NCBI GenBank assembly: GCA_033964015.1
Contig: CM066925.1
Span: forward strand, 6,713,998 to 6,777,997
Source: Scolanthus callimorphus
Taxonomy: Eukaryota; Cnidaria; Anthozoa; Actiniaria; Edwardsiidae
Direction: 5' to 3'
DNA: 64,000 bases
Shown one piece after another: positions 745 to 58,701 of the stretch (within the stretch, counting starts at the first letter, position 1; each line of letters begins with the position of its first letter). The position numbers and the translations under genes are program-made. The notes under the pieces are model-generated. The model worked only from the letters and a program-made list of their open reading frames with translations, searched no databases and was not told the origin of the DNA.

Positions 745-817
745 GCCTCCGTAGTCTAATGGATATGACGTCGGCCTCCTAAGCCGAAGGTTGCGGGTTC
801 GAGTCCCGTCGGAGGTG
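745..817 (+). tRNA. tRNA-Arg (anticodon CCT)
   Basis: 73 nt that fold as a complete cloverleaf: a 7-bp acceptor stem (first pair G-U), D arm with TAATGGAT, anticodon stem TCGGC/GCCGA closing loop CTCCTAA (anticodon CCT, reads AGG), and T arm with GGTTCGAGTCC. No intron and no encoded CCA. A T-run at 823-831 is a good RNA polymerase III terminator. It differs from the copy at 1045 by one base in the T loop (GAGT versus GAAT). Confidence 0.97.
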
Positions 818-1117: not shown

Positions 1118-1806
1118 CTACGTCCGATTTTTTTTTTCTTTATACGAACCGATTCAAACAGTTTTTCAATCATGGTCGTTATCGAAGCTTGCAGCGGTCG
1201 TTAAAATAGAGCTTTTACAATTTTTTTGCTTATTTTTGAGTCATCGTCTTTTGATTCGCAACCTCGTCCCAGGGGTCTTGTGGTAATTTTCACGAGGGTA
1301 AAGGATGAACGTTTTTTCAGAGGGTAGCGTCTTCAAAAGATTTTGAGACGCGGTCGCCCCGTGAAAAAGGCTAAGCCTCTACCCGGTTTTTTTTTTTTCA
1401 GAAACGCCATCTTGAACTTACCCATAACACCTCGGGGACGAGGTTGCTGGCTCGTCGCTTACGTACAGACAACCGAAGGCTCGCCTATGATACGTCAGAA
1501 GGGTCTATTTAACAATTAGATTACGAGCTCGAGATTTCTATGAGCTGATAGATGACGAGCAGTCTTCGACGGGAAATCGAGAGCGAGTAATCTAATTGTT
1601 TTAGTAAAATCACACACACACTACCTTCGAATAATGAAACTTTTTTTTTATTTATATCTTTTAAAAAATGTTCAAAACGCCGGCCTTTTCAAACTCACTA
1701 TCTATGACTCATAGACAGCGAGTTTTGAACAAATCAGAATGCAGGATTCGTGATAGTGTGTGAGTGTGATTTTACTAATTATTAGCAGCCTACTTTGCAT
1801 ATTTAC

Positions 1807-2049
1807 CAATTAAACGAGAGAATAAATGTGCGTTTTCTTAGCTTTGGAGTCTTAACCAGGTCAAGCACCGTGTACTTCGTGTTGTGGTGCTCCCTCTCTA
1901 TTTGGTCCCTCCGGATATCCTCGATCACCTTCGTTATCACCTTTGCGTCCAGGGCTCCTCCATCTTTAGCACCGAACTTCATCAACTGCGCATGCGCCTC
2001 GTCCAGTCGGTTGTGAGCGATAAGCCAACGCGCAGACTCGGGAAACACT
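1807..2049 (-). CDS. SLC22-type transporter, coding exon 4
   Basis: Minus-strand exon read from 2049 down to 1807. The acceptor is a pyrimidine-rich ...ACTTCAG and the donor is GTAAATATG just below 1807. The first base completes the arginine codon split by intron 3, and the last two bases begin a tryptophan codon, so the reading frame is exact. It encodes the end of TM6 with the PESARWL family motif, the cytoplasmic loop, and KTPKLRKRTFILSFNW leading into TM7. The following exons must lie left of the window, because I see no continuation in 1-1800. Confidence in the exon is high; the exact SLC22 subfamily (organic cation, carnitine or anion type) cannot be set from this half of the protein. 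Confidence 0.92.
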
Positions 2050-2546
2050 CTGAAGTTAAGAGCAAGAAAATTGTAAGTCAATGAAAGTGCTTATACGTTC
2101 AATAGAAATTAATTGCATAATTCCTGCATGCTTTGCCGTTGGCTTGCCTAGTTCTTATAAAGACTACACTTAGCACCAAACTTCGTTAATTTCTATAGGT
2201 CAATATGTTCTTTCATTTTCTATGTGATTCGTTCGACCAGGGTATGACACCGCAGCAAAACGTACTACGCACGCGCAGCTTCTCTCTCCCGGTCAAGGCC
2301 TTTGCCGCCATTCCCCCGTACAAAATAATTCTCCCTCGTCAAGTTTTCCTTATATCTGGCGCGAAATTCAAGAATGTAAGCCATAGAAAGAAAATGTAAG
2401 CTTTGAAATCGCATAAAGGTTAGGTTTTTCATAGTTTTTGTGCTTGCACTTAAAGTAAAATGAGAGTTGAAGTTGGCGAATGGGGAGAAAAGACGATATG
2501 TTGTATTTGTAATCAGGAGCTGTAGGAGACGAATTTCATTATGTTA

Positions 2547-13743: not shown

Positions 13744-14562
13744 TATGGAGTGTTGTAATCACAGTTTAATTCAATTACGAACCGATTTCTTTAATTCACT
13801 TTTTGCTGTAAACGATTCATTTGTGAAATTAGACAGAAAGTCGTTATTCTTGTATATTTTATCAATGAAGGACAAATCTGTCATGAAGATATCAGCAAAG
13901 TTCTTCTATAAGGTTCTAACAAGCGTGAATAACCAGCTGAGTTTAAAGGTATAACTGTTATGCTATGCCTGTTAATGGTTTAAAAATGTTAATGTTAATG
14001 TTATTTCTTTACTGATTTACCGATGTATCTTAATTGGATATAAGGTGTATTGAATATTATTATGAGTAATTGCGAAACAGTAATCTCTGCTTTTCATGTA
14101 GTTCACTAGCTTGGATGAGAAGACACCTTTGCACAGCTAGGAAAAGGCCAAATTACGGACGAAATTGCTCTTGAAGTTAATCTAGAAGCTTGTAAAATGT
14201 AATAGCTATCACATGGACTCGCGCATGCGTAGTCGTTTTGCCGCGGTGTCGGATAATATAGTGTACTTATTTGCGAATTTAACAATTCTCCGATGTAGCT
14301 CTAGATTAGCCAATGAAAGAAGTCCAGAATAAATAAAGGTCTTGGAAAGTTTGTAAGTATGTTTTCCTCATATCTTATAGTGAATGTAGCAGGGAAATTG
14401 ACAAAAACTTGCAAACACCTTTTTCTTGGTCGCCATTTTGTTTCTTAGGCCAAAGGACCTGGATCGAGACTTCAAAAATACCACATGGAGCCCGCGCGGA
14501 TTCGTGGAAAACGACAGGACCTTCTTGTTATCGGACCACCGCGCGAAAATCCACGAACTTAC

Positions 14563-14843
14563 CGCCAAGTGAGAAGAATAATCACTGGCAACAAGGAGGA
14601 GGTTAACATCAGATGGCGCCATTCACGGATGTAGTAGCTGAGAAGGGCAGACAGGACGTGCCCTCCAGCCCAGAAGATGTGGTTGACCTTCCCTCCCATT
14701 GTACGGTAGGTCGGTCCCAGTACCTCGATACATAACACGTACACGGCCAGCATGACTGCAGTAACTGAAAGCCCGTTAATAAAACACAGGAAACCCACTA
14801 GAGAAACACAGTTGGCAAACGAGGTGCACAAGGATGATATCAC
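14563..14843 (-). CDS. SLC22-type transporter, coding exon 3
   Basis: 281-bp exon read from 14843 down. The acceptor is TTATTATTTCCAG and the donor is G|GTAAGT. It starts in phase 0 and continues exon 2 directly (SCTIL|VISSLC), and ends with CG of an arginine codon completed in exon 4. It encodes TM3 to TM6, including the conserved CIEVLGPTYRTM segment (family form: EWVGPxYR) and YYIREWR before TM6. About residues 146-239 of the protein. A broken duplicate of its 3' end is at 52652-52735. Confidence 0.93.
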
Positions 14844-15146
14844 CTGGAAATAATAAAAACACCTACCTTCGATATGAACCTGTAATTGGGTATACAGCTA
14901 TATGAACAGTGTTCACAGGGAGCCTGTCGCTATACGCGTATGCTCATTATACAGCCTAAAGCTAAAGTCTGGTTCTCACTGGAACGCAAGCGCAGACGCA
15001 ACCACAAGCGCAAGGATGTCAAACCCATACATTCCCCTTTTGTGGTTCACACTAGTAAACGTAAGCGCAAGAAAATCGAGACTGATCAATGTTGATCTTA
15101 GGCTTGCGTTTGTGTCGCTCATTCACACTTGCCTTGCGCTTGCATT

Positions 15147-15361: not shown

Positions 15362-15970
15362 TGTTGCGCTTGCGTCTTGCACTTGCGTCTTGCGCTTGCG
15401 TCTTGCACTTACGTCCTGCGCTTGCGTCCTGCGCTTGCGTCCTGCGCTTGCGTCCTGCGCTTGCGTCTTGTGCTTGCGTCCTGCGCTTGCGTCCTGCACT
15501 CAATACCTGCACTTGCGTACTGCGCTTGTGTCCTGCGCTTACGTCTTGCGCTTGCATGCTGCGCTTGCGTCTTGCGCTTGCGTCTTCTTTCGCTTGCATC
15601 TTGCGTCTTGTGCTTGCGTCTTGCATTTGCGTCCTGCGCTTGTCTTGCGATTGCGTCCTGCGCTTGCGTCTTGCGCTTGCGTCTTGCACTTGCGTTTTGC
15701 GCTTGCGTCTTTCGCTTGCGTCCTGCGCTTGCGCTTGCGTCCTGCACTTGCGTCCTGCGCTTGCGTCTTGCGCTTGCGTCCTGCGCTTGCGTCTTTGCGC
15801 TTATCGCTATGATTCACACTTGCCTTGCGCTTGCGTCCTGCGCTTACGTCCTGCGCTTGCGTCCTGCGCTTGCGTCCTGCGTTTGCATCCTACGCTTGCG
15901 TACTGCGCTTGCGTCCTGCACTGGCGACCTGCGCTTGCGTCCTGCGCTTGCATGCTGCGCTTGCGTTCCA
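15361..15970 (+). repeat. 13-bp GC-rich minisatellite (GCGCTTGCGTCCT)n
   Basis: About 45 copies of a 13-bp unit with mostly C/T variation. Because 13 is not a multiple of 3, the peptide repeats every 13 codons, and long open frames exist in all three forward frames and on the reverse strand (up to 303 codons). I treat these frames as by-products of the repeat, not genes. Confidence 0.9.
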
Positions 15971-27689: not shown

Positions 27690-29912
27690 TCGCATTTTTA
27701 AAAGGGGGCCATGTGCATAGTTACTCGAGCACATATTTTTCGAATAAGGCTATGTGTGTATTTGTAGAACGAGGCTATGAATACAGTGAACTAGTTCTCC
27801 CTTTTCTTTAATTTACTTTATTTATGTGTATAGAGAACTAGTTCTTTCCAGCACATTTGTAGAACGAGACTATGTGTATAGAGAACTAGTTCTTTCCTGC
27901 TAGAAGATGCTATGTGTGTAGAGAACTAGCTCTTTCCTGCGCATTTGTAGAACGAGGCAATGTGTATAGAGAACTATTTTGTCAAGCGCATTTATAGAAC
28001 GAGGCTATGTGTATAGTGAACTAGTTGTTTCCTGTGCCTTTGTAGAATGCGGGTATGTGTATAGTGAACTATGTTCTTTCCTTGCGCATTTGTAGAACGA
28101 GACTATGTGCATAGAGAACTAGTTCTGTCAAGCGCATTCGTAGAACAAGGCTATGTGTATAGAGAACTAGTTCTTTCCTGCGCATTTGTAGAATGCGGGT
28201 ATGTGTGTAGAGAACTAGTTCTTCCCTGCGCATTTATAGAACGAGGTTATGTGTATAGAAAACTAGTTCTTTCCTGCGCATTTGTAGAATGCGGGTATGT
28301 GTGTAGAGAACTAGTTCTTGCCTGCGCATTTGTAGAACGAGACTGTGTATAAAGAACTAGTTCTTTCAAGTGCATTTGTAGAATGCGTGTACGTGTGAAG
28401 AGAACTAGTTCTTGCCTGCGCATTTGTAGAACCAGGTTATGTGTATAGAGAACTAGATCTTTCCTGCGCATTTGTAGAATGCGGGTATGTGTGTAGAGAA
28501 CTAGTTCTTGCCTGCGCATTTGTAGAACGAGGTTCTATGTATAGAGAACTAGTTCTTTCCTGTGCATTTGTAGAATTCGGGTATGTGTGTAGAGAAAGTT
28601 CTTTCCTGCGCATTTGTAGAATGCGGGTATGTGTGTAGAGAACTAGTTCTTGCCTGCGTATTTGTACAACAAGGCTATGTGTATAGAGAACTAGTTCTTT
28701 CCTGCGCTTTGTAGAATGCGGGTTAGTGTGTAGAGAACTAATTCTTGCCTGCGCATTTGTAGAACGAGGCTATGTGTATAGAGAACTAGTTCTTTCCTGC
28801 CCATTTATAGAACGAGGCTATGTGTATAGAGAACTAGTTTTGTCAAGCGCATTTAGAACGAGGCTATGTGTATAGAGAACTAGTTCTGTCAAGCGCATTT
28901 ATAGAACGAGACTATGTTTATAGAGAACTAGTTCTTTCCTGCGCATTTTTAGAATGCGGGTATGTGTATAGAGAACTAGTTCTTTCCTGCGCATTTGTAG
29001 AACGAGGCTATGTGTATAGAGAACTAGTTCTGTCAAGCGCATTTATAGAACGATGCTATGTGTATAGTGAACTAGTTCTTTCCTGCGCATTTGTAGAACG
29101 AGACTGTGATAAAGAACTAGTTCTTTCGGCGCATTTGTAGAACGAGACTATGTGTATAGAGAACTAGTTCTGTGAAGCGCATTTATAGAACGAGGTTATG
29201 TGTATAGAGAACTAGTTCTGTCAAGAACATTTATAGAACGATGCTATGTGTATAGTGAACTATTCTTTCCTGTGCATTTGTAGAACGAGACTATGTGTAT
29301 AGAGAACTAGTTCTGTCAACAGCATTTAAAGAACGAGGCTATGTGTATAGTGAACTAGTTCCTTCCTGCGTATTTGTAGAACGAGACTATGTGTATAGAG
29401 AACTAGTTCTTTCCTGCGCATTTGTAGAACGAGACTATATGTATAGGCTGTCAAGCGTAAATGTAGAACGAGGTTATGTGTATAGAGAACTAGTTGTTTC
29501 CAGCGCATTTGTAAAACAAGGCTATGTGTTTAGAGCTACTTCTCTCCTGCGCATTTGTAGAGTGAGGATATGTGTATAGAGAACTAGTTCTTTCCTGCGC
29601 ATTTGTAGAACGAGGTAATGTGTATACAGAACTAGTTCTTTCCTGCGCATTTGTAGAATGAGGCTGTGTATAGAGAACTAGTTCTTTCCAGCGCATTTGT
29701 AGAACGAGGCTATGTGTATAAAAAACTAGTTCTTTCCTGTGTATTTGTAGAACGAGGCTATGTGTATAGTGAACTATTTCTTTTCGGCGCATTTGTAGAA
29801 CGAGGATACGTGTATAGAGAACGATCATCCCCGACCAAAAAATATGGGATCCCCCCCAGGCTATGTGTATAGTGAACTGAGTTCTTTCCTGCGCATTTGT
29901 AGAACGAGTTTT
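27690..29912 (+). repeat. 48-bp tandem array, about 46 units
   Basis: The unit is CATTTGTAGAACGAGGCTAT then GTGTATAGAGAACTAGTTCT then TTCCTGCG. Each carries the perfect 12-bp palindrome AGAACTAGTTCT. As 48 is a multiple of 3, 16-residue peptide repeats (ERGYVYRELVLSCAFV) stay open for 60-112 codons on both strands until indels break them. Variants are point changes and 1-3 bp indels. A fragment of the element at 43487-43762 (ATCATCCCCGACC...) interrupts it at 29824-29857. Confidence 0.93.
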
Positions 29913-30741: not shown

Positions 30742-33700
30742 AAGTATTTGAGTTTTTATTTTCGAAAAATGTTTTAAAGCAAAAAACAGAGTTTTTATTT
30801 AGTCGTATCGGGAAGGAATCTTTCTTCTTTGTTTGGACAAAACCATTATTGTTTTGTGAGATTATAGAGGGCTAATAGTTCACCAGACCCAGACATTACA
30901 TGGATAGCAAAACAATGTTTATGAAACAATTGTTTCGTGTATCGATGTCTTTATATTTGCATAAAGTGGGATTATTTTTTCTCCAAGAAGGACAGAGGAT
31001 CCCCGGGCTGTTATACGTACAGATACGCCCGGTCATTTTTGGTGTCACGAGGTATCAGGGCCGTGAAACACACTGACAACTCCCAAATAAAGGCGTGTCA
31101 CGCTAGTGTCAAAAGCGTGAGTCGCTTAGGAGAAACGAACAATAAAACCAGCGATTACTCTTAACTTAACTCTTATTCTAACAGTAGCACGAAAGATTTA
31201 GTAATAGGACACAATTTAGCAATGTGTTTTGCATGGTGTGGGGCTGGAAAACGTGGGAATTGCAAAAGCTAACATTTCGGATCATATCTGCAAATTGTTC
31301 GATGTTTTCTAGATGAGCTGTTTTTGTTTTGTGCCGAACTTCAATTCCTGTGTTGACGCTTGTGTTTGACAAACCAAATAAACTCCAAAAATCATTAGAA
31401 GTATTTGTGAATTTTTATTTTTTCAAACTAAGTTTTGATAATAAGTTTTATTAACGCAAAAAGCAGTGTTTTAGTCGTCTTCGGCAGCGACTCTTTCGTC
31501 TTTGTTTCGGCCAAAAACATGATTTCTTGGGAGATTAGAGAGGGCTAATAGTTCCATCATCCGACCCTTGGACGCTATATGGATAGCCAAACAATATTGA
31601 TGAAATTGTTTCGTGTATCGATGTCTTTATATTTGCATAAAGTGCGATTCTTTTTCTCCAAGAAGGACAGAGGATCCACGGGCTGTTATACGTACAGATA
31701 TGCCCGGTCATTTTTGGTGTCACGAGGTATCAGGGCCGTGAAACACACTGACAACTCCCAAATAAAGGCGTGTCACGCTAGTGTCAAAAGCGTGAGTCGC
31801 TTAGGAGAAGAGAACAATAAAACCAGCGATTACTCTTAACTTAACTCTTATTCTAACAGTAGCACGAACGATTTAGTAATAGGAAGCAATTTAGCAATGT
31901 ATTTTGCATGATTTGGGGCTGGAAAAAGTGGGAATTGCAAAAGCTAACATTTCGGATCAAATCTGCAAATTGTTCGATGTTTTCTAGATGAGCTGTTTTT
32001 GTTTCGTGCCGAAATTCAACTCCTGTGTTGACGCTTGTGTTTGACAAACCAAAAAAACTCCAAAAATCATTAGAAGTATTTGTGAACTTTTATTTTTTCA
32101 AACCAGGTCTTGATAATAAGTTTTTATTAACGCAAAAAGCAGTGTTTTAGTCGTCTCGGCAGCGACTCTTTCGTCTTTGTTTCGGCCAAAAACATGATTT
32201 CTTGTGAGATTAGAGAGGGCTAATAGTTCCATCTCCGACCCTTGGACGCTATATGGATAGCCAAACAATATTGATGAAATTGTTTCGTGTATCGATGTCC
32301 TTATATTTGCATAAAGTGCGATTCTTTTTCTCCAAGAAGGACAGAGGATCCCCGGGCTGTTATACGTACAGATACGCCCGGTCATTTTTGGTGTCACGAG
32401 GTATCAGGGCCGTGAAACACACTGACAACTCCCAAATAAAGGCGTGTCACGCTAGTGTCAAAAGCGTGAGTCGCTTAGGAGAAACGAACAATAAAACCAG
32501 CGATTACTCTTAACTTAACTCTTATTCTAACAGTAGCACGAAAGATTTAGTAATAGGACACAATTTAGCAATGTGTTTTGCATGGTGTGGGGCTGGAAAA
32601 CGTGGGAATTGCAAAAGCTAACATTTCGGATCATATCTGCAAATTGTTCGATGTTTTCTAGATGAGCTGTTTTTGTTTTGTGCCGAACTTCAATTCCTGT
32701 GTTGACGCTTGTGTTTGACAAACCAAATAAACTCCAAAAATCATTAGAAGTATTTGTGAATTTTTATTTTTTCAAACTAAGTTTTGATAATAAGTTTTTA
32801 TTAACGCAAAAAGCAGTGTTTTAGTCGTCTTCGGCAGCGACTCTTTCGTCTTTGTTTCGGCCAAAAACATGATTTCTTGGGAGATTAGAGAGGGCTAATA
32901 GTTCCATCTCCGACCCTTGGACGCTATATGGATAGCCAAACAATATTGATGAAATTGTTTCGTGTATCGATGTCCTTATATTTGCATAAAGTGCGATTCT
33001 TTTTCTCCAAGAAGGACAGAGGATCCCCGGGCTGTTATACGTACAGGGCGCCCGGTCATTTTTGGTGTCACGAGGTATCAGGGCCGTGAAACACACTGAC
33101 AACTCCCAAATAAAGGCGTGTCACGCTAGTGTCAAAAGCGTGAGTCGCTTAGGAGAAGAGAACAATAAAACCAGCGATTACTCTTAACTTAACTCTTATT
33201 CTAACAGTAGCACGAACGATTTAGTAATAGGAAGCAATTTAGCAATGTATTTTGCATGATTTGGGCTGGAAAACGTGGGAATTGCAAAAGCTAACATTTC
33301 GGATCAAATCTGCAAATTGTTCGATGTTTTCTAGATGAGCTGTTTTTGTTTCGTGCCGAAATTCAACTCCTGTGTTGACGCTTGTGTTTGACAAACCAAA
33401 AAAACTCCAAAAATCATTAGAAGTATTTGTGAACTTTTATTTTTTCAAACCAGGTCTTGATAATAAGTTTTTATTAACGCAAAAAGCAGTGTTTTAGTCG
33501 TCTCGGCAGCGACTCTTTCGTCTTTGTTTCGGCCAAAAACATGATTTCTTGTGAGATTAGAGAGGGCTAAAAGTTCCATCTCCGACCCTTGGACGCTATA
33601 TGGATAGCCAAACAATATTGATGAAATTGTTTCGTGTATCGATGTTCTTATATTTGCATAAAGTGCGATTCTTTTTCTCCAAGAAGGACAGAGGATCCCC

Positions 33701-34466
33701 GGGCTGTTATACGTACAGATACGCCCGGTCATTTTTGGTGTCACGAGGTATCAGGGCCGTGAAACACACTGACAACTCCCAAATAAAGGCGTGTCACGCT
33801 AGTGTCAAAAGCGTGAGTCGCTTATGAGAAGAGAACAATAAAACCAGCGATTACTCTTAACTTAACTCTTATTCTAACAGTAGCAAGAACGATTTAGTAA
33901 TAGGAAGCAATTTAGCAATGTATTTTGCATGATTTGGGGCTGGAAAACGTGGGAATTGCAAAAGCTAACATTTCGGATCAAATCTGCAAATTGTTCGATG
34001 TTTTCTAGATGAGCTGTTTTTGTTTCGTGCCGAAATTCAACTCCTGTGTTGACGCTTGTGTTTGACAAACCAAATAAACTCCAAAAATCATTAGAAGTAT
34101 TTGTGAACTTTTATTTTTTCAAACCAAGTCTTGATAATAAGTTTTTATTAACACAAAAAGCAGTGTTTTAGTCGTCTCGGCAGCGACTCTTTCGTCTTTG
34201 TTTCGGCCAAAAACATGATTTCTTGTGAGATTAGAGAGGGCTAATAGTTCCATCTCCGACCCTTGGGCGCTATATGGATAGCCAAACAATATTGATGAAA
34301 TTGTTTCGTGTATCGATGTCTTTATATTTGCATAAAGTGCGATTCTTTTTCTCCAAGAAGGACAGAGGATCCCCGGGCTGTTATACGTACAGATACGCCC
34401 GGTCATTTTTGGTGTCACGAGGTATCAGGGCCGTGAAACACACTGACAACTCCCAAATAAAGGCGT
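30742..34466 (+). repeat. 674-bp tandem array, 5.5 units in two alternating types
   Basis: Units start AAGTATTTG at 30742, 31399, 32074, 32748, 33421 and 34095 (lengths 657, 675, 674, 673, 674, then 372 bp). In their second halves, units 1 and 3 are one type and units 2, 4 and 5 the other, giving order A-B-A-B-B. Every unit carries ATTTGCATAAAGTGCGATTC (an octamer-like site), GGTGTCACGAGGTATCAGGG and GGCGTGTCACGC. Conserved short ORFs (64, 86 and 99 codons) occur in most units on both strands with no domain. Confidence 0.95.
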
Positions 34467-37400
34467 TCCACGCGCGAAGTCGAGACGAAACATGCCAATG
34501 AATAAAAATAAAAAGTAACGTGTTATAGCAAGAAGCCAAATGGTTTAGTAAAAAAACATAAATTAAATTTTCTTCGGTGAATTTTTCACGAAAATATGGT
34601 TCGACACGGGACTAGAAACTGGTCTAAACCAACTAAAACTGTTCTTGAGGCTCGCGCGGTGTCTTACGTGTTCGCGCCATTCTTTCATTTTGGCGGGAAA
34701 GTATTCAGCGCGCTTCCTAGAAAAAGTACTTTTACTCGGTCAGTTTTGCAAGATGCTCTCGTCCGCATCTTGTGGTGGTAGGCTGATCTCCCGCTTAACT
34801 TTTTCATTATTGTTTCGCACATTTCCTCTACTTCTGCTGAATTTGGATCATGGGCTGCTCTCATACAGTTGCATTTCTAAAATATCTCGCTTTTCTACTC
34901 GAATTCATTCATTGCAGCTCCTGCAATGGGAAAACAAGATCGGAGAGAAGATGGTGGCTTTCTTTATTCAGCAAGGTTTTGAAATGAGATGAGTTCTCGA
35001 ACTGTACACACAGACAAAAAGAGTACATGAATGAAGAGCACACAATAAATGTTAGAATATAAGAAAGGAAGAAGGTTTCCAAGGAAGACCGAAAAGGTAA
35101 GCTAATAAACCAGAATATCTAAGTATCTTATTTCCAACTTAAATTCGTAATTCATTGATACTTATTTCATGCATTCAACTTGAATTTTTACGCTGTGACA
35201 TTTTGCGGAAACGGGACACAATAAATATAAAACATCGACCTAAACGGCAGACTAGAGTTCGTGTGCTGATGTTGATTTTATTACATTTTATCGATAACCT
35301 AAGTAATGGAAATGAAATGTAATTATTTGAGAAAAAACACCAAAGACGACACCGATTGACCGAGGAGGACTAAAACCAAGAGAGCTGGGTAATCAATATC
35401 AAAATGGCGGATGAACGAGGCAAATTTTAATATCTTTACTTATTCTCGCCAGCAGACTTCAGCAGACAAGACAACCAACTCGTTGACCTACAATTTAATC
35501 TAGTTACTGCAGTGGGTTTAAGAGTACCTGACATCCAAACAGTGAGTCCCATCAAATTTATATTTAGATTTTCATGGCCGCTTGGAGATGCAAATCCTGG
35601 GGTATTCCACCGTGTAAGAACCATCCCCAGAGGACACCTTTGTGTTCAGCTCTCCTTTCATCATGATTCGTTCTACTAAGCAGAGGAAGCTTTTGTGACG
35701 CAGCTTATGAGTTGTTCCGTGTTCTATACGGAGGAACAGCCAAATTGTAGGGGGAGGGGGCTTCCATAAAATTAGACAGGAGGGGGTAATTCCGAATTCC
35801 ATAAAATTTGACAGAAGTTATTGAGATTGCATAAAACCTGGCGTGTTCAATTGTTAAAATCGATAATCGATACCACTTGATAAAATTAGCAAATTATATA
35901 TCAGAAATTGATATAAATCGTGGATAAGGAAAATCGCTGTGAGTAATCGATTATCAATTTTTCGATCAAGGCTATCGATTTTATCGATTTCATCAATTAA
36001 TATCAATTTTCTGTTTTCAAGGAAACCTGTCCCCCCCCCCCCCCCCCACACACTTCAAAAACAATTTTTAGATGGAAAAATATATATTGGAGATTCTTAA
36101 TCTATATTATAATTTTAATCTATATTATAACATCTTAAGCCTGTCGAGCTAACCAGCACAATTGATGTGATGCATATCACTCCCAGGGCTGCAAGCTGGT
36201 GTTTATAGTTTTTTTGAAATCTATGCGAGAGAAGCCGCCATTGAGGCATTTTCTTTACCGGGGAGATGCTGTCCGCCATCACATTTGGCATTGCTTTACA
36301 AACAAAGATAAAATTTCAGTGAATGAAAGCTTGAAATAAAAGAAATATAGAACATTTCATTTAACGGGAGCTGTCCATTTAAGTTGAATTAGTCTTGTTT
36401 TTACAATTTGTAGCTCAAACCCAGGCAAATGTTGTTGTCTTATGCTTTCTTTAACAAAAAAGTGATCTTGCTAATTGAACTCCATATGTTTCTTCGCACG
36501 GATGTGCCTAGGGAAGCCATTCAAGTGCGCACAAAGAGAAAAACAAGAAAAAAACTCAGAGATGAGTTGCTCGCTGCCGAAATTTAGGGTTTTCAGATCA
36601 TTAGGGGTAGTGAATGGTAAATCCAAAACAGCGAGACTGGCTGTTTAAAATCGGAGCCCGAAACAAAAAAATATCTCAAAATATCAGCTGCTGTATTCAC
36701 TGTTTTCAAACAACAACTTTACAAGATAGAGCACCCCCTGTCCAAATTGCAGGATACACACCGGATGGGTTGGGTGGGTTATTCCCTATATTCTGATGGT
36801 AGGTATGACTGTCATATTATTAGGGGTTAAAATTATTGGCGATAGGGGGATACCTGTAGGGAAAGACTGGATTTTCGCAGTGGTATATAAGTCAGAAGAA
36901 CAGATCAAAAGGGAATAAAACCACTTGGCTGTGCTTCTTCCTTGAAAAAAATAGATAATGCCACCAAAATGTGCACTCATTCTAAAATTAACTCGAATTC
37001 CCAAAGAAACCCCTTATTTTGAAACAACAGTGTCAATTATGTGATCTCTGGGGTAATAACACAAGAATGAGTATGTGAAAAATTATTGACAAGCGACTTT
37101 CAAAATTCAATTTGTTGAATGACCACAATAATCCTCACCCCCAATTGTCTTGTGTCATTGATTACCTAGACAATTGTTTAAAATAGTCCAGGAGCCAACA
37201 GGCTTTGGCTTTGCAGAAAAGTCTTTTTCTGGCTTACATTCGCTTTTGACAAACTTTTTACGGGATGGCCAGTGGTTGACCTAATAGCACAGTAATGCAA
37301 TTATGTAACTTAGTGAGTAATGTAAATCATTCAATAGCCAAATATCTGATTCTTTGACTGGATCTGTGTCAAAAACATCATCATCGGTTTTTTCCTTGTT

Positions 37401-44601: not shown

Positions 44602-45170
44602 CAGTCTTGAACGCAAAAATAAATCCGTGCCAATGTAATCAAACAAAGAACTAGCTTACCCGGAGCATGAAAATTTCCCAGGAATGCGACGTTTGCGCAG
44701 ACTCACAGGCCTGCCCTCTTGGCTGCGCCCGCATTCCTTTGTCAGCGTCGACAAATTTCTCACCTGCTCAAAGGTGCAAGTTATTTCCACGCTATGGTGA
44801 AAAATAGACAACTAAGGTGCCTGCCAAAACTTCTAAATAATAAAAACCTGGAAATGATACTACAAGCTAAGCATGTTTGTACCCTTATGCTAAAAAGAAA
44901 AAGCGTTGAGGTCTTACACGGAAATGCACGGAGTGTGAGAAAGGGTTCAGACCCTCCCTCATTTCCCTTGAAATTGTTTTTCCTCCCTCATTTTCACTCG
45001 GAAAAAAATCCGCCTGATATTCGGGCATTCGAGTAGCGACCAAACTGATAATGAAATTAGTTAATTCATACCTTATATACGCACTAATCGACCAATGAAA
45101 ATAGTTGCTATATTATAACACCCGTCAGGGCCATAACGCACGGCTAGCTGCATGTTGTTAATACATTAGC

Positions 45171-45335
45171 TATAAAATTTATGGGGTTATGACGTATACT
45201 GTTGGGACAGTGCTATTAATAAATATGCAAATTTACGAAAAGAAAATGAGATGCGGGTCAGACGACGGATCGAGACAGAACCAGAACTCCTTACGCGATA
45301 GATTCTAATATACTCGTCTTTCTCAATATTCAAAA
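45171..45335 (+). promoter_or_regulatory. Candidate promoter of the TRIM-NHL gene
   Basis: CTATAAAATT (TATA-like) near 45171 and a perfect octamer ATGCAAAT at 45225-45232 lie 165 and about 105 bp before the ATG. The octamer is conserved in copy B (55266-55273), while the TATA-like site is changed there to CTATAACATT. POU-type factors bind the octamer in other animals; use here is inference. Confidence 0.35.
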
Positions 45336-47573
45336 ATGGATATCCTCAGAGAAGAGCTCCAGAACTCGCTTAAATGTCCCATGTGTTTCGAAATCCCATC
45401 AGAGCTGAAACTACTGGAGTGTTTTCATGCTTTGTGCGAGAACTGCTTGACACACAACGCCAGACCCGACGAAAGCGAAACTCAGTTGTGCTGTCCATTG
45501 TGCAAGACCAGCACCGTGCTTCCCACAACCGGCGATGTTACGTCTCTACCCACAAGCGAAGTACACTTGAATATGAAACAAGTTTTAAATCTCACAGGAG
45601 AGACAGGTTCCGGTCGTCCAGCTTGTTCTTCTTGCAAGAAAGAAGGCAAAGAAACCCCTTCAAATCATTATTGTTGTGACTGCCCTCGCTATCTCTGTCA
45701 GGATTGCTTCAAAGGACATCAGATGTTTTGTGAAGGGCACAAAGTGCTCCATCTGCGAGAGCTTACCGACCAAGATATGGCCTTCATATTTTTAAGGCCG
45801 TCATTCTGCAGCCACAACAGGCATACACATGAAATCTTAAAGTATTTTTGCAGCAATTGCCGAAATTGTTTGTGTGAAAAATGCCTAAAGGAACACCAAA
45901 CAGGACATGATATTTTGGACTTGGAAAATACAGCCGCAGGTCAACAAGATATTTTGCGTGAAAAACTTGGACTTCTCGATACCAAAGCTGCAGCAGAGCA
46001 CGAGAAATTGAACACCATAAGGGATAAGATATCTGAGATAAAAAGGAAAGCAGAGGAAATTAAATCTCAGGTAATTAAAGCCGCTAAGGAACTCGCTCAC
46101 TTTATTGAAGAAAATAAAGGAAACTTGCTCAGACAGATTGACGAAGAGGTCAGAAATGCGCTCAGTCGAGACGAAGAAGAGCAACGCTTATTGGATCAAA
46201 TTCAAGCAGCAAGAGATCACATAACAAAACTGACTAAATATGCTACTTCCTGTCACGTGGTGCAATCCAAGATTTCCGTTGAAGAACGACTTGAAAGGAT
46301 GCTAGAAATGCAGGTAGAGCTCAGTGATCTGGAACGTCATATGGAATTTATTCCTAACAATGATCTCTATAAAATACAAGAGTTCGGGCTCGGATATATT
46401 CGTGCAGTAAGACCAGTAGATGCGACTAAATGTTTTGTTAAAATTGAATCCGACGTCGAAGCATTGCAAGCTTTGAATAAAATCTGTCTCAGTGTCCATT
46501 TTAGAGATTCCTCTGGAGAAAGTGTTGGGAAATTTCCAGGGACCAATAATGTTGAAGTCCGCATTGATCCGAGAACGGAAATTAAAGATTTGAAAGTATC
46601 AGAAAACCAAGAAGATAAGTGTAATGTCCAGTTTACCCCCAAGACTTCAGGACATTTTACCATCAGTGTGATAGTGAATGGTCATCACGTGTCGAACAGC
46701 CCGATGGGTTTCGATGTAAAACCACAGGAACTGAAGGTTATAATTGGGTTGTTTGCCATGACAGGAATGGCCAAACCGATGACGCAGCCATATGGCATTG
46801 CAGTAAATAAATCAAACACGAAGATCGCTATTACAGATCGGTTATCCAGCTGTGTGCAGATCTTTAATATAGAGGGTGCACTGATCAGGACAATTCGTGA
46901 CACGGTTCAGCCACGACTGAGTGCTCCTGATGGGGTCTCGTTTCTGAATGAAGAAGATATTGTTGTTTCTGATTCAAATAACCATAGAATTGTCATTTTT
47001 AAGACAAGTACTGGCAAAGTTCTGAAATGTTTTGGTGGAAAAGGTGATAGTCCTGGAGCGTTTGATTACCCAACTGGGGTTCATGTTGATGAGAGTGGAC
47101 GTATCATGGTGTGTGACTGGAATAACAGGCGTGTACAGGTTTTCACAGGAAGAGGGGAACACCTGTTTGAGATTAACCGGCAATTACTGCAGCATGGGGT
47201 TTTTTGCTCGCCATTCAGTGTAACATCTCATGAGGATCTTGTACTGGTGTCTGACTGTAACCAGCATGTCGTGCATGTGCTACAACTACATGGGAGCTCA
47301 TCATCAGTGACAAGGCACAGTACAATAGGAGAACCAGGTCGTGCTGATGGTCAGCTGAGTTACCCTTGTGGTCTAGCGGTCGACAGAGATGGTAACCTCT
47401 TGGTTTGTGATGAAGCAAATCACCGCATTCAAAAGTTCACGCTGGATGGCACTGGTAAGCTGGTTGGTAAATCATCCGGTATCACTGGCAACCCCAGGTA
47501 TTTAGCGATATTAGCAGATGGTCGTATTCTAGTTACGTGCTCGGATAGTAATCAAGTACTGATTGTTAGGTGA
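45336..47573 (+). CDS. TRIM-NHL E3 ubiquitin ligase (TRIM2/3/71-like), intact copy A
   Basis: A single-exon 745-residue protein with the full TRIM-NHL order. The C3HC4 RING spans residues 14-56 (C14, C17, C29, H31, C34, C37, C53, C56), the part expected to recruit a ubiquitin E2. B-box 1 is about 97-138 and B-box 2 about 158-195 with their Cys/His ligands present. A charged coiled coil (about 200-325) should mediate dimerisation. A filamin-type Ig domain (about 365-465) precedes six NHL repeats forming a beta-propeller, whose x-P-x-G turns have their leading residue at 484, 530, 578, 625, 676 and 719. In related proteins (Brat, TRIM71) the propeller binds RNA or protein partners. The start is the first ATG, 13 codons before the first RING cysteine and identical in position in copy B. 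No intron is needed, so it may descend from a retrocopy or an intronless family expansion. No clear AATAAA follows. Its target is unknown. Confidence 0.96.
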   Translation: MDILREELQNSLKCPMCFEIPSELKLLECFHALCENCLTHNARPDESETQLCCPLCKTSTVLPTTGDVTSLPTSEVHLNMKQVLNLTGETGSGRPACSSCKKEGKETPSNHYCCDCPRYLCQDCFKGHQMFCEGHKVLHLRELTDQDMAFIFLRPSFCSHNRHTHEILKYFCSNCRNCLCEKCLKEHQTGHDILDLENTAAGQQDILREKLGLLDTKAAAEHEKLNTIRDKISEIKRKAEEIKSQVIKAAKELAHFIEENKGNLLRQIDEEVRNALSRDEEEQRLLDQIQAARDHITKLTKYATSCHVVQSKISVEERLERMLEMQVELSDLERHMEFIPNNDLYKIQEFGLGYIRAVRPVDATKCFVKIESDVEALQALNKICLSVHFRDSSGESVGKFPGTNNVEVRIDPRTEIKDLKVSENQEDKCNVQFTPKTSGHFTISVIVNGHHVSNSPMGFDVKPQELKVIIGLFAMTGMAKPMTQPYGIAVNKSNTKIAITDRLSSCVQIFNIEGALIRTIRDTVQPRLSAPDGVSFLNEEDIVVSDSNNHRIVIFKTSTGKVLKCFGGKGDSPGAFDYPTGVHVDESGRIMVCDWNNRRVQVFTGRGEHLFEINRQLLQHGVFCSPFSVTSHEDLVLVSDCNQHVVHVLQLHGSSSSVTRHSTIGEPGRADGQLSYPCGLAVDRDGNLLVCDEANHRIQKFTLDGTGKLVGKSSGITGNPRYLAILADGRILVTCSDSNQVLIVR

Positions 47574-48010
47574 AAATACTCTAGTATGTGTACGTTTACT
47601 GCACTTTATATTCCTGAGTCACTGTTACTCCAGAGCTCGTACCCAGAGGCTCTGATAACAGCAACTGTAAACGTGATATTGTACGATAATGTAAATAAGA
47701 TAATCTCTTGGACGATTAGTGAGCTATTAGGCCTGGTGCACACTTGTGACATAACGACAAAAGAAAATATCAAGCGATCAAAATTTAGCGGTTTGAAAAT
47801 GTGAAGTCCACAAAAAATAACATAACATTGCTTTGGTGAAGTAATCTAATGATTTTTGTTCAATTATTTTCCCATGCTTTTTTCGTTGCAACATAACGTC
47901 CATATGTCGTTATGTCGCTAGTGTGCACCGGGCTTTAGTGTTGAACTCATGTTGACTCTTACGTCATAAGTGATTGACTGTTGTATATTAGAATAAGAGG
48001 TATTATGTTA
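47574..48010 (+). repeat. 3' flank with palindromic element (GGTGCACACT family)
   Basis: 47729-47937 has inverted ends GGCCTGGTGCACACTTGTGA / TCGCTAGTGTGCACCGGGCT. Its right half plus ~70 bp is repeated at 48590-48770. Copy B has the same element at 57773-57975. Between the stop codon and this element is plain 3' flank with one CCAGAGCTCGTACCCAGAGG motif. Confidence 0.75.
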
Positions 48011-50765: not shown

Positions 50766-51433
50766 GACAGTCGCTATCCTGGTGTTGAATTGCTCAGTAG
50801 CTAGATACCTATGAGTGAATTAACGCCCGGCCACCAGACCATATAAGGACGCCCCTTGTACCGTTAGTGAACAATCAACTAATTAAAATAATGCATCACC
50901 AACATATTTATAGGCCTGAAGAGTGTGTTAGAGATAAATCCATGTGGGACACGTTGTTGGTTGTCTTTTTAACTAGTAGTAGCTTATTTAACGATAATGC
51001 AGAAATATTTTTCACAGTTGCTGTTTAGCATGTTTATTAGCTCATATTCCAATAGTAGGCATTACATTGACACGGGAATGAGTTTATTTTTGAGTTGTCT
51101 GTTTGCGCATGCGCACATACGTCATCTTGTACCTCCATCACAGCGTGAGAAAGTCAGCATGACCAAGAGGCTCTGGGAGCGAGATTGGACCCTTCGGTTT
51201 TCTGGCCCAAAGCAGCATTTACTTTTTCCTTTAATGTCGTTCTCCATTTGTCCGAAACACTCCTCTATCCACGGACGACGCCTTACGTAGATCGATAGAG
51301 AGGTGGGCAAGTAGAGGTCTAAATAGTGAAACTAAACAAAGGCAACAGTCTCTATGCAAAGCCTCCGTAGTCTAATGGATATGACGTCGGCCTCCTAAGC
51401 CGAAGGTTGCGGGTTCGAATCCCGTCGGAGGTG
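50766..51433 (+). repeat. tRNA-leader segment of copy A
   Basis: Starts GACAGTCGCTATCCTGGTGT and is colinear with 1-1117 and 62388-63025. Short ORFs in it (for example the one containing HLVPPSQREKV) are only shared because the DNA is duplicated; they show no coding pattern. Confidence 0.9.
51361..51433 (+). tRNA. tRNA-Arg (anticodon CCT), copy A
   Basis: 73 nt, identical to the copy at 1045: intact acceptor, D, anticodon (loop CTCCTAA) and T arms. The terminator is weaker than in copy 1: TTTT at 51445-51448, then G and six more T. Same leader as the other copies. Confidence 0.97.
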
Positions 51434-54850: not shown

Positions 54851-55388
54851 CCCCCCCCCCCCCCCCCCCCCCCCCGGCGATAGATAATGACCGGTCCCTA
54901 ATCTCCCTAATCTCTCTTTCTTACCCGTTTTTTAGCAGCACCATCAAAAGATAAAATAATTTGGACACACATTTGGAACTAAAAGATACCAATCTCCCTA
55001 AACTTTTGTTGCAGATCAAGGTTACCCCTAAAAGAGACCAAAACCCGTAATTATAACCACTAAAAGATACGACGATCATCCATGTACAATTTATTTCAGC
55101 ATCCCCGACCCAACAATATGGGAGGTCCCCCCCCCCCCCCCCCCCCTCCCCGGGATTATAACACCCGTCAGGGCCATAAAGCACGACTGGCCGTTTTTAA
55201 TACATTACCTATAACATTTATGAGGTCTTGTGACGCGTACTGTTGAGACGGTGCTATTAATAAATATGCAAATTTACGAAAAGAAATGAGATACGGGTCA
55301 CACGACGGATCGAGACTATCGACACAGACACAACCAGAACTCCTTCCGCGATAGATTCTAATATACTCGTATTTCTCAATATTCAAAA

Positions 55389-57618
55389 ATGGAAATCCTC
55401 AGAGAAGAGCTCCAGAACTCGCTTAAATGTCCCATGTGTTCCGAAATCCCATCAGAGCTGAAATTACTGGAGTGTTTTCATGCTTTGTGCGAGAACTGCT
55501 TGACACAAAACGCCAGACCCGACGAAAGCGAAACTCAGTTGTGCTGTCCATTGTGCAAGACGAGCACTGTGCTTCCCACAACCGGCGATGTTACGTCTCT
55601 ACCCACAAGCGAAGTACACTTGAATATGAAACAGGTTTTAAATCTCACAGGAGAGACAGGTTCTGGTCGTCCAGCTTGTTCTTCTTGCAAGAAAGAAGGC
55701 AAAGAAACCCCTTCAAATCATTATTGTTGTGATTGCCCTCGCTATCTCTGTCAGGATTGCTTCAAAGGACATCAGATGTTTTGTGAAGGGCACAAAGTGC
55801 TCCATCTGCGAGAGCTTACCGACCAAGATATGGCCTTCGTATTTTTAAGGCCGTCATTCTGCAGCCACAACAGGCATACACATGAAATCTTAAAGTATTT
55901 TTGCAGCAATTGCCGAAATTGTTTGTGTGAAAAATGCCTAAAGGAACACCAAACAGGACATGATATTTTGGACTTGGAAAATACAGCCGCAGGTCAACAA
56001 GATATTTTGCGTGAAAAACTCGGACTTCTCGATACCAAAGCTGCAGCAGAGCACGAGAAATTGAACACCATAAGGGATAAGATATCTGAGATAAAAGGAA
56101 AGCAGAGGAAATTAAATCTCAGGTAATTAAAGCCGCTAAGGAACTCGCTCATTTTATTGAAGAAAATAAAGGAAACTTGCTCAGACAGATTGACGAAGAG
56201 GTCAGAAATGCGCTCAGTCGAGACGAAGAAGAGCAACGCTTATTGGATCAAATTCAAGCAGCAAGAGATCACATAACAAAATGACTAAATATGCTACTTC
56301 CTGTCACGTAGTGCAATCCAAGATTTCCGTTGAAGAACGACTTGAAAGGATGCTAGAAATGCAGGTAGAGCTCAGTGATCTGGAACGTCATATGGAATTT
56401 ATTCCTAACAATGATCTGTATAAAATACAAGAGTTCGGGCTCGGATATATTCGTGCAGTAAGACCAGTAGATGCGACTAAATGTTTTGTTAAAATTGAAT
56501 CCGACGTCGAAGCATTGCAAGCTTTGAATAAAATCTGTCTCAGTGTCCATTTTAGAGATTCCTCTGGAGGAAGTGTTGGGAATTTCCAGGGACCAATAAT
56601 GTTGAAGTCCGCATTGATCCGAGAACGGAAATTAAAGATTTGAAAGTATCAGAAAACCAAGAAGATAAGTGTAATGTCCAGTTTACCCCCAAGACTTCAG
56701 ACATTTTACCATCAGTGTGATGGTGAATGGTCATCACGTGTCGAACAGCCCGATGGGTTTTGATGTAAAACCACAGGAACTGAAGGTTATTGGGTTGTTT
56801 GCCATGACAGGAATGGCCAAACCGATGACAGAGCCATATGACATTGCAGTAAATAAATCTAACACGAAGATCGCTATTACAGATCGGTCATCCAACTGTG
56901 TGCATATCTTTAATATAGAGGGTGTACTGCTCAAGACAATTCGTGTCACGAGGCAGCCAAAAATGAGATGCCCTCATGGGGTCTCGTTTCTGAATGAAGA
57001 CGATATTGTTGTTTCTGTTGAAGATAACAATAGAATTGTCATTTTTAAGACAAGTACTGGCAAAGTTCTGAATGTTTTGGTGGAGAAGGTAATAGTCCTG
57101 GAGAGTTCAGTTGGCCATGTGGGGTTCATGTTGATGAGAGTGGACGTATCATGGTGTGTGACTGGTATAACAGGCGTGTACAGGTTTTCACAGGAAGAGG
57201 GGAACACCTGTTTGAGATTAAACAGCAATTCCTGCAGCATGGGGGTTTTTGCGTGCCACTCAGTGTAACATCTCATGGGGATCTTGTTCTGGTGTCTGAC
57301 TATAACAACAATGTCGTGCATGTGCTACAACTACATGGGAGCTCATCATCAGTGACAAGACACAGTACAATAGGAGAACCAGGTCGTGCTGATGGTGAGC
57401 TGAGTCAACCTTGTGGTCTAGCGGTCGACAGAGATGGTAACCTCTTGGTTTGTGATGAAGCAAATCACCGCATTCAAAAGTTCACGCTGGATGGCTCTGG
57501 TAAGCTGGTTGGTAAATCATCTGGTATCACTAGCAGACCCATGCATTTAGCGATATTGGCAGATGGTCGTATTCTAGTTACGTGCTGGGATAGTAATCAA
57601 GTACTGATTGTTGGGTGA
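55389..57618 (+). pseudogene. TRIM-NHL copy B, frame broken by five single-base deletions
   Basis: Same start and stop as copy A and the same domain order. Relative to A, one base is missing near 56093 (A-run, coiled coil), 56281 (C), 56581 (A, filamin domain), 56700 (G) and 57071 (A, NHL blade 2-3 link). In addition an in-frame 3-bp deletion lies near 56790. As written only the RING, both B-boxes and part of the coiled coil (245 codons) are translated. Outside the NHL region only about six residues differ from A (D2E, F18S, H40Q, I151V, E395G, I446M) against about eleven silent changes. In the NHL region about 46 residues differ against about six silent changes. It is either a recent pseudogene or a functional gene with consensus errors, since all five breaks are 1-bp losses, mostly in short base runs. 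Confidence 0.9.
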
Positions 57619-57772
57619 AAATACTCTAGTGTGTCTACGTTTACTGCACTATATAGTCCTGAGTCACTGTCACTCCAGAGCTCATACCCAGAGGCTCTGA
57701 TAACAGTAACTGTATACGTGATATTGGTGATAATGTAAATACGATAATCTCTGGGACGATTAGTGAGCTATT

Positions 57773-57975
57773 AGGCTTGGTGCACACTTGCGACATAACG
57801 ACAAAAGAAAGTTCAAGCGATCAAAATTTAGCGGTTTCAAAAAGTTGAAGTCCACAAAAAAATAACGTAAGTATTGCTTTGGTGAAGTAATCTAATGATT
57901 TTTTTTCAGTTATTTTCCCATGCTTTTTTCGTTGCAACATAACGTCCATATTTCGTTATGGGGCTAGTGTGCACC
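57773..57975. repeat. Palindromic element in 3' flank, copy B
   Basis: Paralogue of 47729-47937: GGCTTGGTGCACACTTGCGA at the left and GGCTAGTGTGCACCGGCTTT at the right. Confidence 0.75.
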
Positions 57976-58019
57976 GGCTTTAGTGTTGAACTCATGTTGA
58001 CTCTTACGTCATAAGTGAT

Positions 58020-58701
58020 TGGTGAGTAACAAACTGCACCAAAAATGCCCTGCAGTGATAGGTCTGGCGGGCAGTCACTATGTTCGAAAGAAGAGCAAGC
58101 GTCAGTTCGACGTTACAGGCATAAAAATTCGTCATTTGGGCCGCGCTTCTCGCAAATGAATAAATAATTTCGGCGCGCAATAGACCTCCTCGCCTTGGCG
58201 TAATGTTTTCCCATTTCAGATCACGTGGCATTCATTTGAATAATCTTTCTTTGCCTGGGCTTCTTCCATATTCATATATCCTACGGTGCGTAGCAGAAAG
58301 ACAAAGAAAGAATACTCATGGGAATGCCACGTGACCTGAAATGGGCAAAACAAACGGCAAGCCGAGGAGGTCTATTGCGCGCATGAATAATAAACCTATA
58401 CAGGATTTGTTAACTATACACAAAAAACAACGGAATGTTCATCTACACTTTCTCTAAGGTTTGATGAAATGCGTTTATCAAAATTCGGGCGCGCTTCACG
58501 CACAGCGAAAGAAAAATGCGATCCCCTCTATCTGTAAATTGCCTTCTACTAGGTCAAATAGGGGTCGGGGGGATCACGAAAACGTTTAACTGCTCTGAGG
58601 GGAATCACGTTAATCATTGTACTTGACCTTGTTTTACCCAAAATCCTACCCCCCCCCCCCCCCCCCCCCCCCCCCTCAAGCGATAAATAATGACCGGTCC
58701 C
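58020..58701 (+). repeat. GGGACCGGTC family element, interior and right end
   Basis: Interior as in 48240-48590, then a 27-C tract (58649-58675), CGATAAATAATGACCGGTCC and C|TTA. The left end is missing. It is interrupted by the palindromic element at 58188-58377. Confidence 0.75.
58188..58377. repeat. 190-bp palindromic insertion with empty site in copy A
   Basis: Arms begin CAATAGACCTCCTCG and end CGAGGAGGTCTATTG, and include TTTCAGATCACGTGGCATTC. Copy A reads CGCAATTGCGCG at the same place (about 48465-48478), so this element inserted after the A/B duplication. Confidence 0.85.

What the first reader, a model, noticed from the sequence alone, without database searches (positions are those of the whole stretch)
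46785..47573. NHL propeller of the TRIM-NHL paralogues is diversified at equivalent positions in every blade
Seen: comparing copy A (45336-47573) with copy B (55389-57618, read across its breaks), RING to filamin differ at about 6 residues with about 11 silent changes, but the NHL region (~276 codons) differs at about 46 residues with about 6 silent changes. The residue before the proline of the x-P-x-G turn changes in six of six blades (A to B: Q/E, A/C, Y/W, S/V, Y/Q, N/R at residues 484, 530, 578, 625, 676, 719). The residue after that proline changes in four of six, and the D-x-x-N loops change in most blades. Known: in NHL proteins such as Brat and TRIM71 one face of the propeller binds ligand. 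Inference: a constant ubiquitin-ligase chassis with a ligand-facing surface under diversifying selection, as one expects of a recognition or defence gene family.
Basis: partly seen in the sequence, partly recalled or inferred. Interest (0 to 1): 0.88.

Follow-up and report, generated by a model that had tools for sequence, protein, structure and literature searches.

The report
Coral TRIM ligases with hypervariable propeller faces
What is probably a coral genome holds a large family of closely related ubiquitin-ligase genes whose recognition domain changes again and again, under strong selection, at the same few surface positions of each propeller blade, much as immune receptors do.

Summary
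Copy A against copy B: RING-to-filamin 6 amino-acid and 11 silent codon differences (dN/dS 0.14-0.21), NHL propeller 46 and 7 (2.1-2.7), with similar dS. The window lies in a 597-Mb genome, probably a hexacoral's, with at least 72 TRIM-NHL loci; 34 of 62 copies examined have a long intact ORF. Intact copies of five clusters repeat the pattern: NHL dN/dS 0.97-1.77, chassis 0.30-0.44. Site models, run on three clusters, favour positive selection in NHL (C7: 2dlnL 225, omega about 10 at 13% of sites) and not in the chassis. The four most variable blade positions (before and after the x-P-x-G proline, first and second after the D-x-x-N aspartate) hold 13 of the 14 RNA contacts published for LIN41. 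There the family is rich in Trp and Tyr with near-zero net charge, unlike TRIM71, which suggests protein or peptide ligands. Best reading: an NHL-based recognition repertoire on a conserved E3 ligase. Ligand and immune role are inferred, not shown. My searches found no published account of it.

The parts
45336..47573 (+). Copy A: intact single-exon TRIM-NHL gene, 745 aa (RING, B-box, coiled coil, filamin, six-bladed NHL)
   Evidence: ORF; Pfam B-box, filamin, NHL (no RING model reached the threshold there; RING region matches TRIM2 RING chains); fold
45336..46736 (+). Conserved chassis of copy A: RING (C3HC4 residues 14-56), B-box, coiled coil, filamin; dN/dS 0.14-0.21 against copy B
46737..47573 (+). 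NHL propeller of copy A, dN/dS 2.1-2.7 against copy B
46785..46793 (+). Blade 1, residues 484-486 (x-P-x), D-A loop side of the top face
46839..46850 (+). Blade 1, residues 502-505, B-C loop, hypervariable
46923..46931 (+). Blade 2, residues 530-532 (x-P-x)
46974..46985 (+). Blade 2, residues 547-550, B-C loop, hypervariable
47067..47075 (+). Blade 3, residues 578-580 (x-P-x)
47118..47129 (+). Blade 3, residues 595-598, B-C loop (two residues shorter in the C7 cluster)
47208..47216 (+). Blade 4, residues 625-627 (x-P-x)
47256..47267 (+). Blade 4, residues 641-644, B-C loop
47361..47369 (+). Blade 5, residues 676-678 (x-P-x)
47412..47423 (+). Blade 5, residues 693-696, B-C loop (unchanged between A and B, hypervariable in the C7 cluster)
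47490..47498 (+). Blade 6, residues 719-721 (x-P-x)
47541..47552 (+). Blade 6, residues 736-739, B-C loop, hypervariable
55389..57618 (+). Copy B: closely related paralogue, frame broken by five 1-base deletions (young pseudogene or assembly error, not decided)
45112..47976 (+). Duplicated block around copy A (94.6% identical to the block around copy B)
55155..58021 (+). Duplicated block around copy B

Best explanation
The two window copies belong to a large, largely clustered family of single-exon TRIM-NHL E3 ubiquitin ligases in what is probably a hexacoral. Shown: a chassis (RING to filamin) under purifying selection carries an NHL beta-propeller whose strands B-D and bottom loops are also constrained, while four positions per blade on the top face (either side of the x-P-x-G proline, and the two residues after the D-x-x-N aspartate), with weaker change at their neighbours, have been changed repeatedly by positive selection, so that nearly every copy has its own surface. 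Inferred: each copy grips a different ligand with this platform and marks it with ubiquitin. The tryptophan- and tyrosine-rich make-up without net charge suggests protein or peptide ligands. A recurrent arms race, with pathogen or other non-self proteins inside the cell, is the likeliest driver, as argued for TRIM5alpha and fish finTRIM B30.2 domains.
For: A/B contrast with similar dS. Five clusters of intact copies: NHL dN/dS 1.77, 1.23, 1.35, 1.53, 0.97; chassis 0.30, 0.36, 0.41, 0.44, 0.30. M1a against M2a: NHL 2dlnL 225.4 (C7), 44.2 (C1), 37.9 (C15); chassis 2.1, 3.6, 0.14. The C7 result holds with the NHL tree, the chassis tree and a star tree, and for M8a against M8. Eleven non-overlapping pairs of my choosing: 24 contact positions N 226, S 28, pN/pS 2.59, p = 4e-8; framework 0.59, chassis 0.42. 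Of the blade positions profiled, P-1, D+1, P+1 and D+2 have the highest pN (0.52, 0.44, 0.44, 0.41), while the proline between two of them has pN 0. Of 14 LIN41-RNA contact residues named in PMC5908797, 13 fall on these four positions and the other on P-2, itself the next most variable. Posterior >0.9 sites in the contact set: C7 18 of 26, C1 8 of 11, C15 5 of 8 (hypergeometric 2.5e-19, 9.8e-8, 1.5e-4). 46 of 49 copies with an open NHL have distinct contact strings; W 34-fold and Y 9-fold enriched, mean net charge +0.2. All 34 intact copies keep the eight RING residues.
Against: No ligand, expression, cell or population data. Near-identical copies (L022/L041/L054; L047/L061) do not differ at contact positions, and L046/L060 differ at 43 residues of which only 1 is a contact position (L060's match begins near residue 104). 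In C15b the NHL mean is 0.97, and in C14 contact pN/pS (1.37) is no higher than the rest of NHL (1.38). dS at contact positions comes out raised (0.15 against 0.065 in the rest of NHL); part of this may be path averaging. Exchange between copies is likely (L036/L042 chassis dS 0.011 against NHL 0.042; C14 the reverse, 0.129 against 0.042), which can inflate site-model tests. The contact set came from published contacts, but I had seen the paralogue alignment before fixing it. Many copies are broken, copy B among them.
Confidence: 0.68

Rival explanations
1. The platform recognises RNA (viral or transposon RNA), as in TRIM71/LIN41 and Brat, and the positions diversify to follow changing RNA sequences.
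Against: The contact sites average net charge +0.2 (range -4 to +7) in 49 copies, while the same 24 sites of TRIM71 carry +8. Lys is depleted (0.57-fold) and Trp 34-fold enriched, more like a protein paratope.
Confidence: 0.17
2. The copies have specialised for different endogenous targets (tissues, stages, symbiosis control), a neofunctionalisation burst rather than a defence arms race.
For: The same dN/dS pattern would arise. Orthogroups with NHL repeats and with B-box zinc fingers are reported as expanded in merulinid corals (PMC11639872, passage).
Against: Nine C7 copies at mean dS near 0.08 all differ at the contact face and broken or partial copies are common, which looks like continual turnover rather than stable division of labour.
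Confidence: 0.12
3. Non-self (allo-)recognition between colonies, by analogy with fungal HNWD propellers.
For: In Podospora HNWD repeats, four codons in two pairs, in the D-A loop and the B-C turn of the propeller top, are under positive selection (PMC1805685, passages), the same geometry as here.
Against: TRIM proteins act inside cells and coral colonies rarely share cytoplasm (recalled); nothing here tests it.
Confidence: 0.05
4. Artefact: loss of constraint in a pseudogene, local hypermutation or recombination mistaken for selection.
For: Copy B and many other copies are broken; exchange between copies is likely.
Against: The cluster analyses use only intact copies, apart from the A/B count; dN exceeds dS, which loss of constraint cannot give; the proline codon between two hypervariable codons has pN 0 and ordinary pS (0.055); same-amino-acid codon pairs show no consistent rise in silent change (contact 0.113 from 26 changes, neighbouring sites 0.040, framework 0.073); the non-overlapping pairs need no tree.
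Confidence: 0.02

Closest known systems
TRIM71/LIN41 and other class VII TRIM-NHL proteins (TRIM2, TRIM3, Brat, Mei-P26, Thin)
   Different: TRIM2, 3, 45 and 71 are group 1 TRIMs, described as conserved and under purifying selection (PMC2533329, passages). Here there are dozens of single-exon copies with a face under positive selection and without TRIM71's positive charge.
finTRIMs of teleosts and primate TRIM5alpha
   Same: TRIM chassis plus a C-terminal recognition domain with loops under positive selection; multigene expansion in clusters (PMC2657112, passages).
   Different: There the recognition domain is B30.2/SPRY; here it is an NHL propeller. No antiviral activity has been shown here.
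Podospora HNWD (het-d/het-e) genes with WD40 propellers
   Same: Four codons per repeat, two pairs, on the D-A loop and the B-C turn of a propeller top face, under diversifying selection (PMC1805685, passages).
   Different: Unrelated protein family (NACHT and WD repeats), fungal, repeats up to 100% identical and in concerted evolution (same passages); the six NHL blades here differ from each other.
Expanded NHL-repeat and B-box orthogroups of merulinid corals
   Same: Possibly the same kind of gene in related animals (PMC11639872, one passage).
   Different: That passage reports expansion only; it says nothing of selection or of the propeller face. Whether those orthogroups are this family was not tested.

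Membership tests
Class VII TRIM (TRIM-NHL) | RING, B-box, coiled coil, filamin, six NHL blades in one chain | tested here: met
   Pfam B-box, filamin and NHL in copy A; RING not reported by Pfam but C3HC4 residues present in all 34 intact copies and the region matches TRIM2 RING chains; coiled coil only from predicted helices of low confidence; six blades predicted
Class VII TRIM (TRIM-NHL) | E3 ligase activity | not testable with these tools
   Only conserved RING residues and chassis dN/dS 0.30-0.44
TRIM71/LIN41 RNA-binding type | Positively charged top-face pocket | tested here: not met
   Mean net charge +0.2 (range -4 to +7) at the contact sites of 49 copies against +8 in TRIM71; by sequence, not by a surface calculation
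Group 1 TRIM (slowly evolving) | Purifying selection over the protein | tested here: not met
   NHL dN/dS 0.97-1.77 among intact copies
finTRIM / TRIM5-type immune TRIM | B30.2/SPRY recognition domain | tested here: not met
   NHL, and no SPRY reported, in the Pfam scan of copy A
finTRIM / TRIM5-type immune TRIM | Positive selection concentrated in ligand-facing loops | tested here: met
   that the loops face a ligand is by homology to LIN41
finTRIM / TRIM5-type immune TRIM | Antiviral activity or induction | not testable with these tools
   No expression or assay data
HNWD-type hypervariable propeller | Positively selected codon pairs in D-A loop and B-C turn | tested here: met
   compared with PMC1805685 passages
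HNWD-type hypervariable propeller | NACHT domain and WD40 repeats | tested here: not met
   No NACHT or WD40 reported in the Pfam scan of copy A

The most novel reading that the evidence does not exclude
Hexacorals carry an intracellular, germline-encoded recognition repertoire in which an NHL propeller plays the part of a paratope: about two dozen residues on one face of a constant E3 ligase are individually diversified in dozens of genes. It arose independently of B30.2-based antiviral TRIMs and converges, loop for loop, with the fungal HNWD self/non-self propellers.
Probability: 0.5. Interest if true: 0.9.

Novelty: new variant of a known kind. Interest (0 to 1): 0.8.

Why it matters
TRIM-NHL proteins are known mainly as conserved regulators. 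Here the same architecture evolves like an immune receptor, with selection falling on the positions that bind RNA in LIN41. It offers a natural library of dozens of propellers on one scaffold, makes an intracellular recognition system of corals directly testable, and gives an independent second case, after the fungal HNWD genes, of a hypervariable beta-propeller face.

Tried and rejected
Relaxed constraint in copy B: rejected, because intact copies alone show the pattern. Local hypermutation: judged unlikely. TRIM71-like RNA binding as the default: lowered by the charge comparison. Protein database searches: one real relative, an Actinia tenebrosa TRIM71-like protein, 34% identical, plus a distant NHL protein; only about 8000 candidates were scored each time, so nothing follows about other species. 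Search for a further copy just upstream of the window, suggested by the repeat of the window's first 2 kb near 50.7 kb: none in the 10 kb before it. Species name: not found; a hexacoral is inferred from the mitochondrial layout, which is recalled knowledge applied. AlphaFold model of the chassis: too poor to use (mean pLDDT 55 overall; NHL from residue 481 on, 66-94 per ten-residue block); the alignment behind it had two sequences. Literature searches for selection on NHL domains or TRIM-NHL expansions in cnidarians listed no paper that by title or abstract describes diversifying selection on an NHL domain; only open-licence papers are held. PMC12314368, PMC4346834 and PMC10236652 were searched for TRIM or NHL terms and hold no mention of NHL.

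Limits of the statistics: NG86 counts average over paths; the codon models are my own numpy code (F3x4, branch-length ratios fixed from M0, naive empirical Bayes), not PAML or FUBAR; recombination was not modelled; the 11 pairs were picked by me from close relatives; in blade 4 the residue before the proline aligns one column early outside the C15 cluster, so it was counted as a neighbour, not as a contact (which works against the claim); contact strings therefore hold gaps (1075 of 1176 cells filled). The genome search scores only about 60 candidates a query, so locus counts are lower bounds; ten of the 79 loci counted lie on contigs under 2 Mb that may be alternative haplotypes.

Full report
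The observation. Copy A is an intact 745-codon gene at 45336-47573 with B-box, filamin and NHL domains and the eight residues of a C3HC4 RING. Copy B (55389-57618) matches along its length, with five 1-base deletions and one 3-base deletion. dS is similar in both parts (0.038, 0.047); dN is 0.0055 and 0.097. NHL dN/dS is 2.06, 2.39 or 2.73 for kappa 1, 2 or 4 (p = 0.029, 0.009, 0.0024); the chassis is at 0.14-0.21. Noncoding flanks differ by 8.2% and 6.1%. So the excess is in replacement changes, not in age.

The family. The window lies at C15:6,713,998-6,777,997 of a 596.8-Mb genome in 302 contigs. Searches with four family members give at least 72 distinct loci from the first two plus copy B; by eye, five more are seen and two more, 79 in all, ten of them on contigs under 2 Mb that may be haplotypes. 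I fetched 60 of the 72 (L009-L068); with A and B in the window that makes 62, of which 34 have an ORF of 700 or more residues (one search lists 33, plus A). Eight further partial copies were fetched later and only compared by tblastn. Clusters: C15 near 6.8-7.3 Mb (this window), C7 near 6.5-7.7 Mb, C1 near 31.1-31.2 Mb, C14 near 1.2-1.3 Mb, C15 near 17.5 Mb. Intact members of a cluster are 88-95% identical, clusters about 48-62% to each other, with a few intermediates at 74-82%. The organism is probably a hexacoral: COX1 occurs in three full copies at 16,446-base spacing, and a partial fourth, at the end of C1; one period holds only two tRNAs (Met, and one with anticodon TCA) and nad5-like frames in two places (by eye). 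That reading of the layout is recalled knowledge.

Selection. Five sets of intact copies (3, 9, 5, 2, 2 genes): mean NHL dN/dS 1.77, 1.23, 1.35, 1.53, 0.97; chassis 0.30, 0.36, 0.41, 0.44, 0.30. dS is alike in the two parts in the three larger sets; it differs in C14 (chassis 0.129, NHL 0.042), C15b (0.069, 0.095) and in the pair L036/L042 (0.011, 0.042), which points to exchange between copies. Site models were run on the three larger sets: M1a against M2a gives 2dlnL 225.4 (C7), 44.2 (C1), 37.9 (C15) for NHL, with omega 10.5, 7.8 and 23.6 at 13%, 13% and 8% of sites, and 2.1, 3.6, 0.14 for the chassis. For C7 the result is much the same on three trees, star included, and for M8a against M8. 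To be free of trees, 11 non-overlapping pairs of close relatives were counted: contact positions N 226, S 28 (p = 4e-8); four neighbouring positions per blade N 129, S 21 (p = 0.0065); framework N 245, S 157; chassis N 368, S 298.

Where the changes fall. The set of contact positions (P-1, P+1, D+1, D+2 in six blades) was taken from published LIN41-RNA contacts and not from variability, but after I had seen the paralogue alignment. PMC5908797 (passages read) names 14 contacting residues; 13 fall on these four positions and one on P-2 (chance about 8e-15 for 24 of 267 sites). The same four positions have the highest replacement rate of the blade positions profiled (pN 0.52, 0.44, 0.44, 0.41); next come P-2 0.30 and D+4 0.27, then P+2 0.18 and D+3 0.15, and the rest are below 0.09. 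The proline between two of them has no replacement at all. By the predicted fold, B-C loops have pN/pS 3.25, D-A loops 1.32, A-B and C-D loops 0.52 and 0.38, strands B-D 0.28-0.64; strand A is at 2.85, I infer because P+1 and P+2 sit at its start. D-A and B-C loops lie on one face of a propeller (established knowledge). The best solved matches are TRIM71 and LIN41 NHL structures, two of them with RNA.

What the face looks like. In 49 of the 61 copies given to the test (A and L009-L068) the NHL frame is open; 46 of these 49 have distinct contact strings. Trp is enriched 34-fold and Tyr 9-fold over the rest of NHL, Arg 1.5-fold, Lys depleted to 0.57, and the mean net charge is +0.2, range -4 to +7. 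TRIM71 carries +8 at the same 24 positions. This favours protein or peptide ligands over an RNA backbone, but does not exclude base-specific RNA binding.

Results against. The C15b set does not reach 1 over the whole NHL, and in C14 contact positions are not above the rest of NHL. Near-identical copies (L022/L041/L054, L047/L061) show no contact change and the pair L046/L060 one in 43. Silent change per site at contact positions is raised in the path-averaged count (0.15); in same-amino-acid pairs it is 26 changes in 231 sites (0.113) against 0.073 in framework and 0.083 in the chassis, while neighbouring hypervariable sites are at 0.040: no consistent hypermutation. Copy B cannot be said to make protein.

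Mechanism. Shown: constant ligase, one diversified face. Inferred: the face binds variable targets, the RING marks them with ubiquitin. The nearest functional parallels are finTRIM and TRIM5alpha B30.2 loops (PMC2657112, passages) and the Podospora HNWD WD40 propellers, in which two codon pairs in the same two loops are under diversifying selection (PMC1805685, passages). By contrast TRIM2, 3, 45 and 71 are group 1 TRIMs, described as conserved and under purifying selection (PMC2533329, passages).

Novelty. Expansion of NHL-repeat and B-box orthogroups is on record for merulinid corals (PMC11639872, one passage). My searches listed no report of diversifying selection on an NHL domain. I file it as a new variant of a known kind: a TRIM recognition repertoire with an NHL propeller in place of B30.2.

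Noticed in passing
G000:C1:44059067-44114303 (L078-L083): COX1 in three full copies (16,446-base spacing) and a partial fourth at the end of a chromosome-sized contig: probably a mitochondrial genome misjoined in tandem rather than a nuclear insertion. Only one period was read.
   Followed up: partly
window 30774-34473: About five and a half tandem copies of a unit of roughly 675 bases, 86-97% identical between stretches, with a repeated open frame of about 100 codons on the minus strand.
   Followed up: no
window 27823-29822: Minisatellite of about 42 copies of 48 bases (a multiple of three) with open frames of 94-152 codons on both strands.
   Followed up: no
window 15365-15966: About 47 copies of a 13-base unit that keep several frames open on both strands; it accounts for the only other ORFs of 150 aa or more with a start codon in the window.
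   Followed up: no
window 745-817, 1045-1117, 51361-51433: Three tRNA genes, two in the repeat at the window's start and one in its copy near 51 kb.
   Followed up: no
window 1803-2090 and 14559-14897, minus strand: Two coding-looking pieces that resemble SLC22-type organic ion transporter exons (by eye, from memory, not tested).
   Followed up: no
L036 and L042; L030 and L031: Chassis and NHL of the same gene pair have very different silent divergence (0.011/0.042 and 0.129/0.042), a sign of exchange between paralogues.
   Followed up: partly
L022, L041, L054 and L047, L061: Near-identical copies with identical contact residues, on different contigs or 0.36 Mb apart: haplotype duplicates or very recent copies.
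   Followed up: partly
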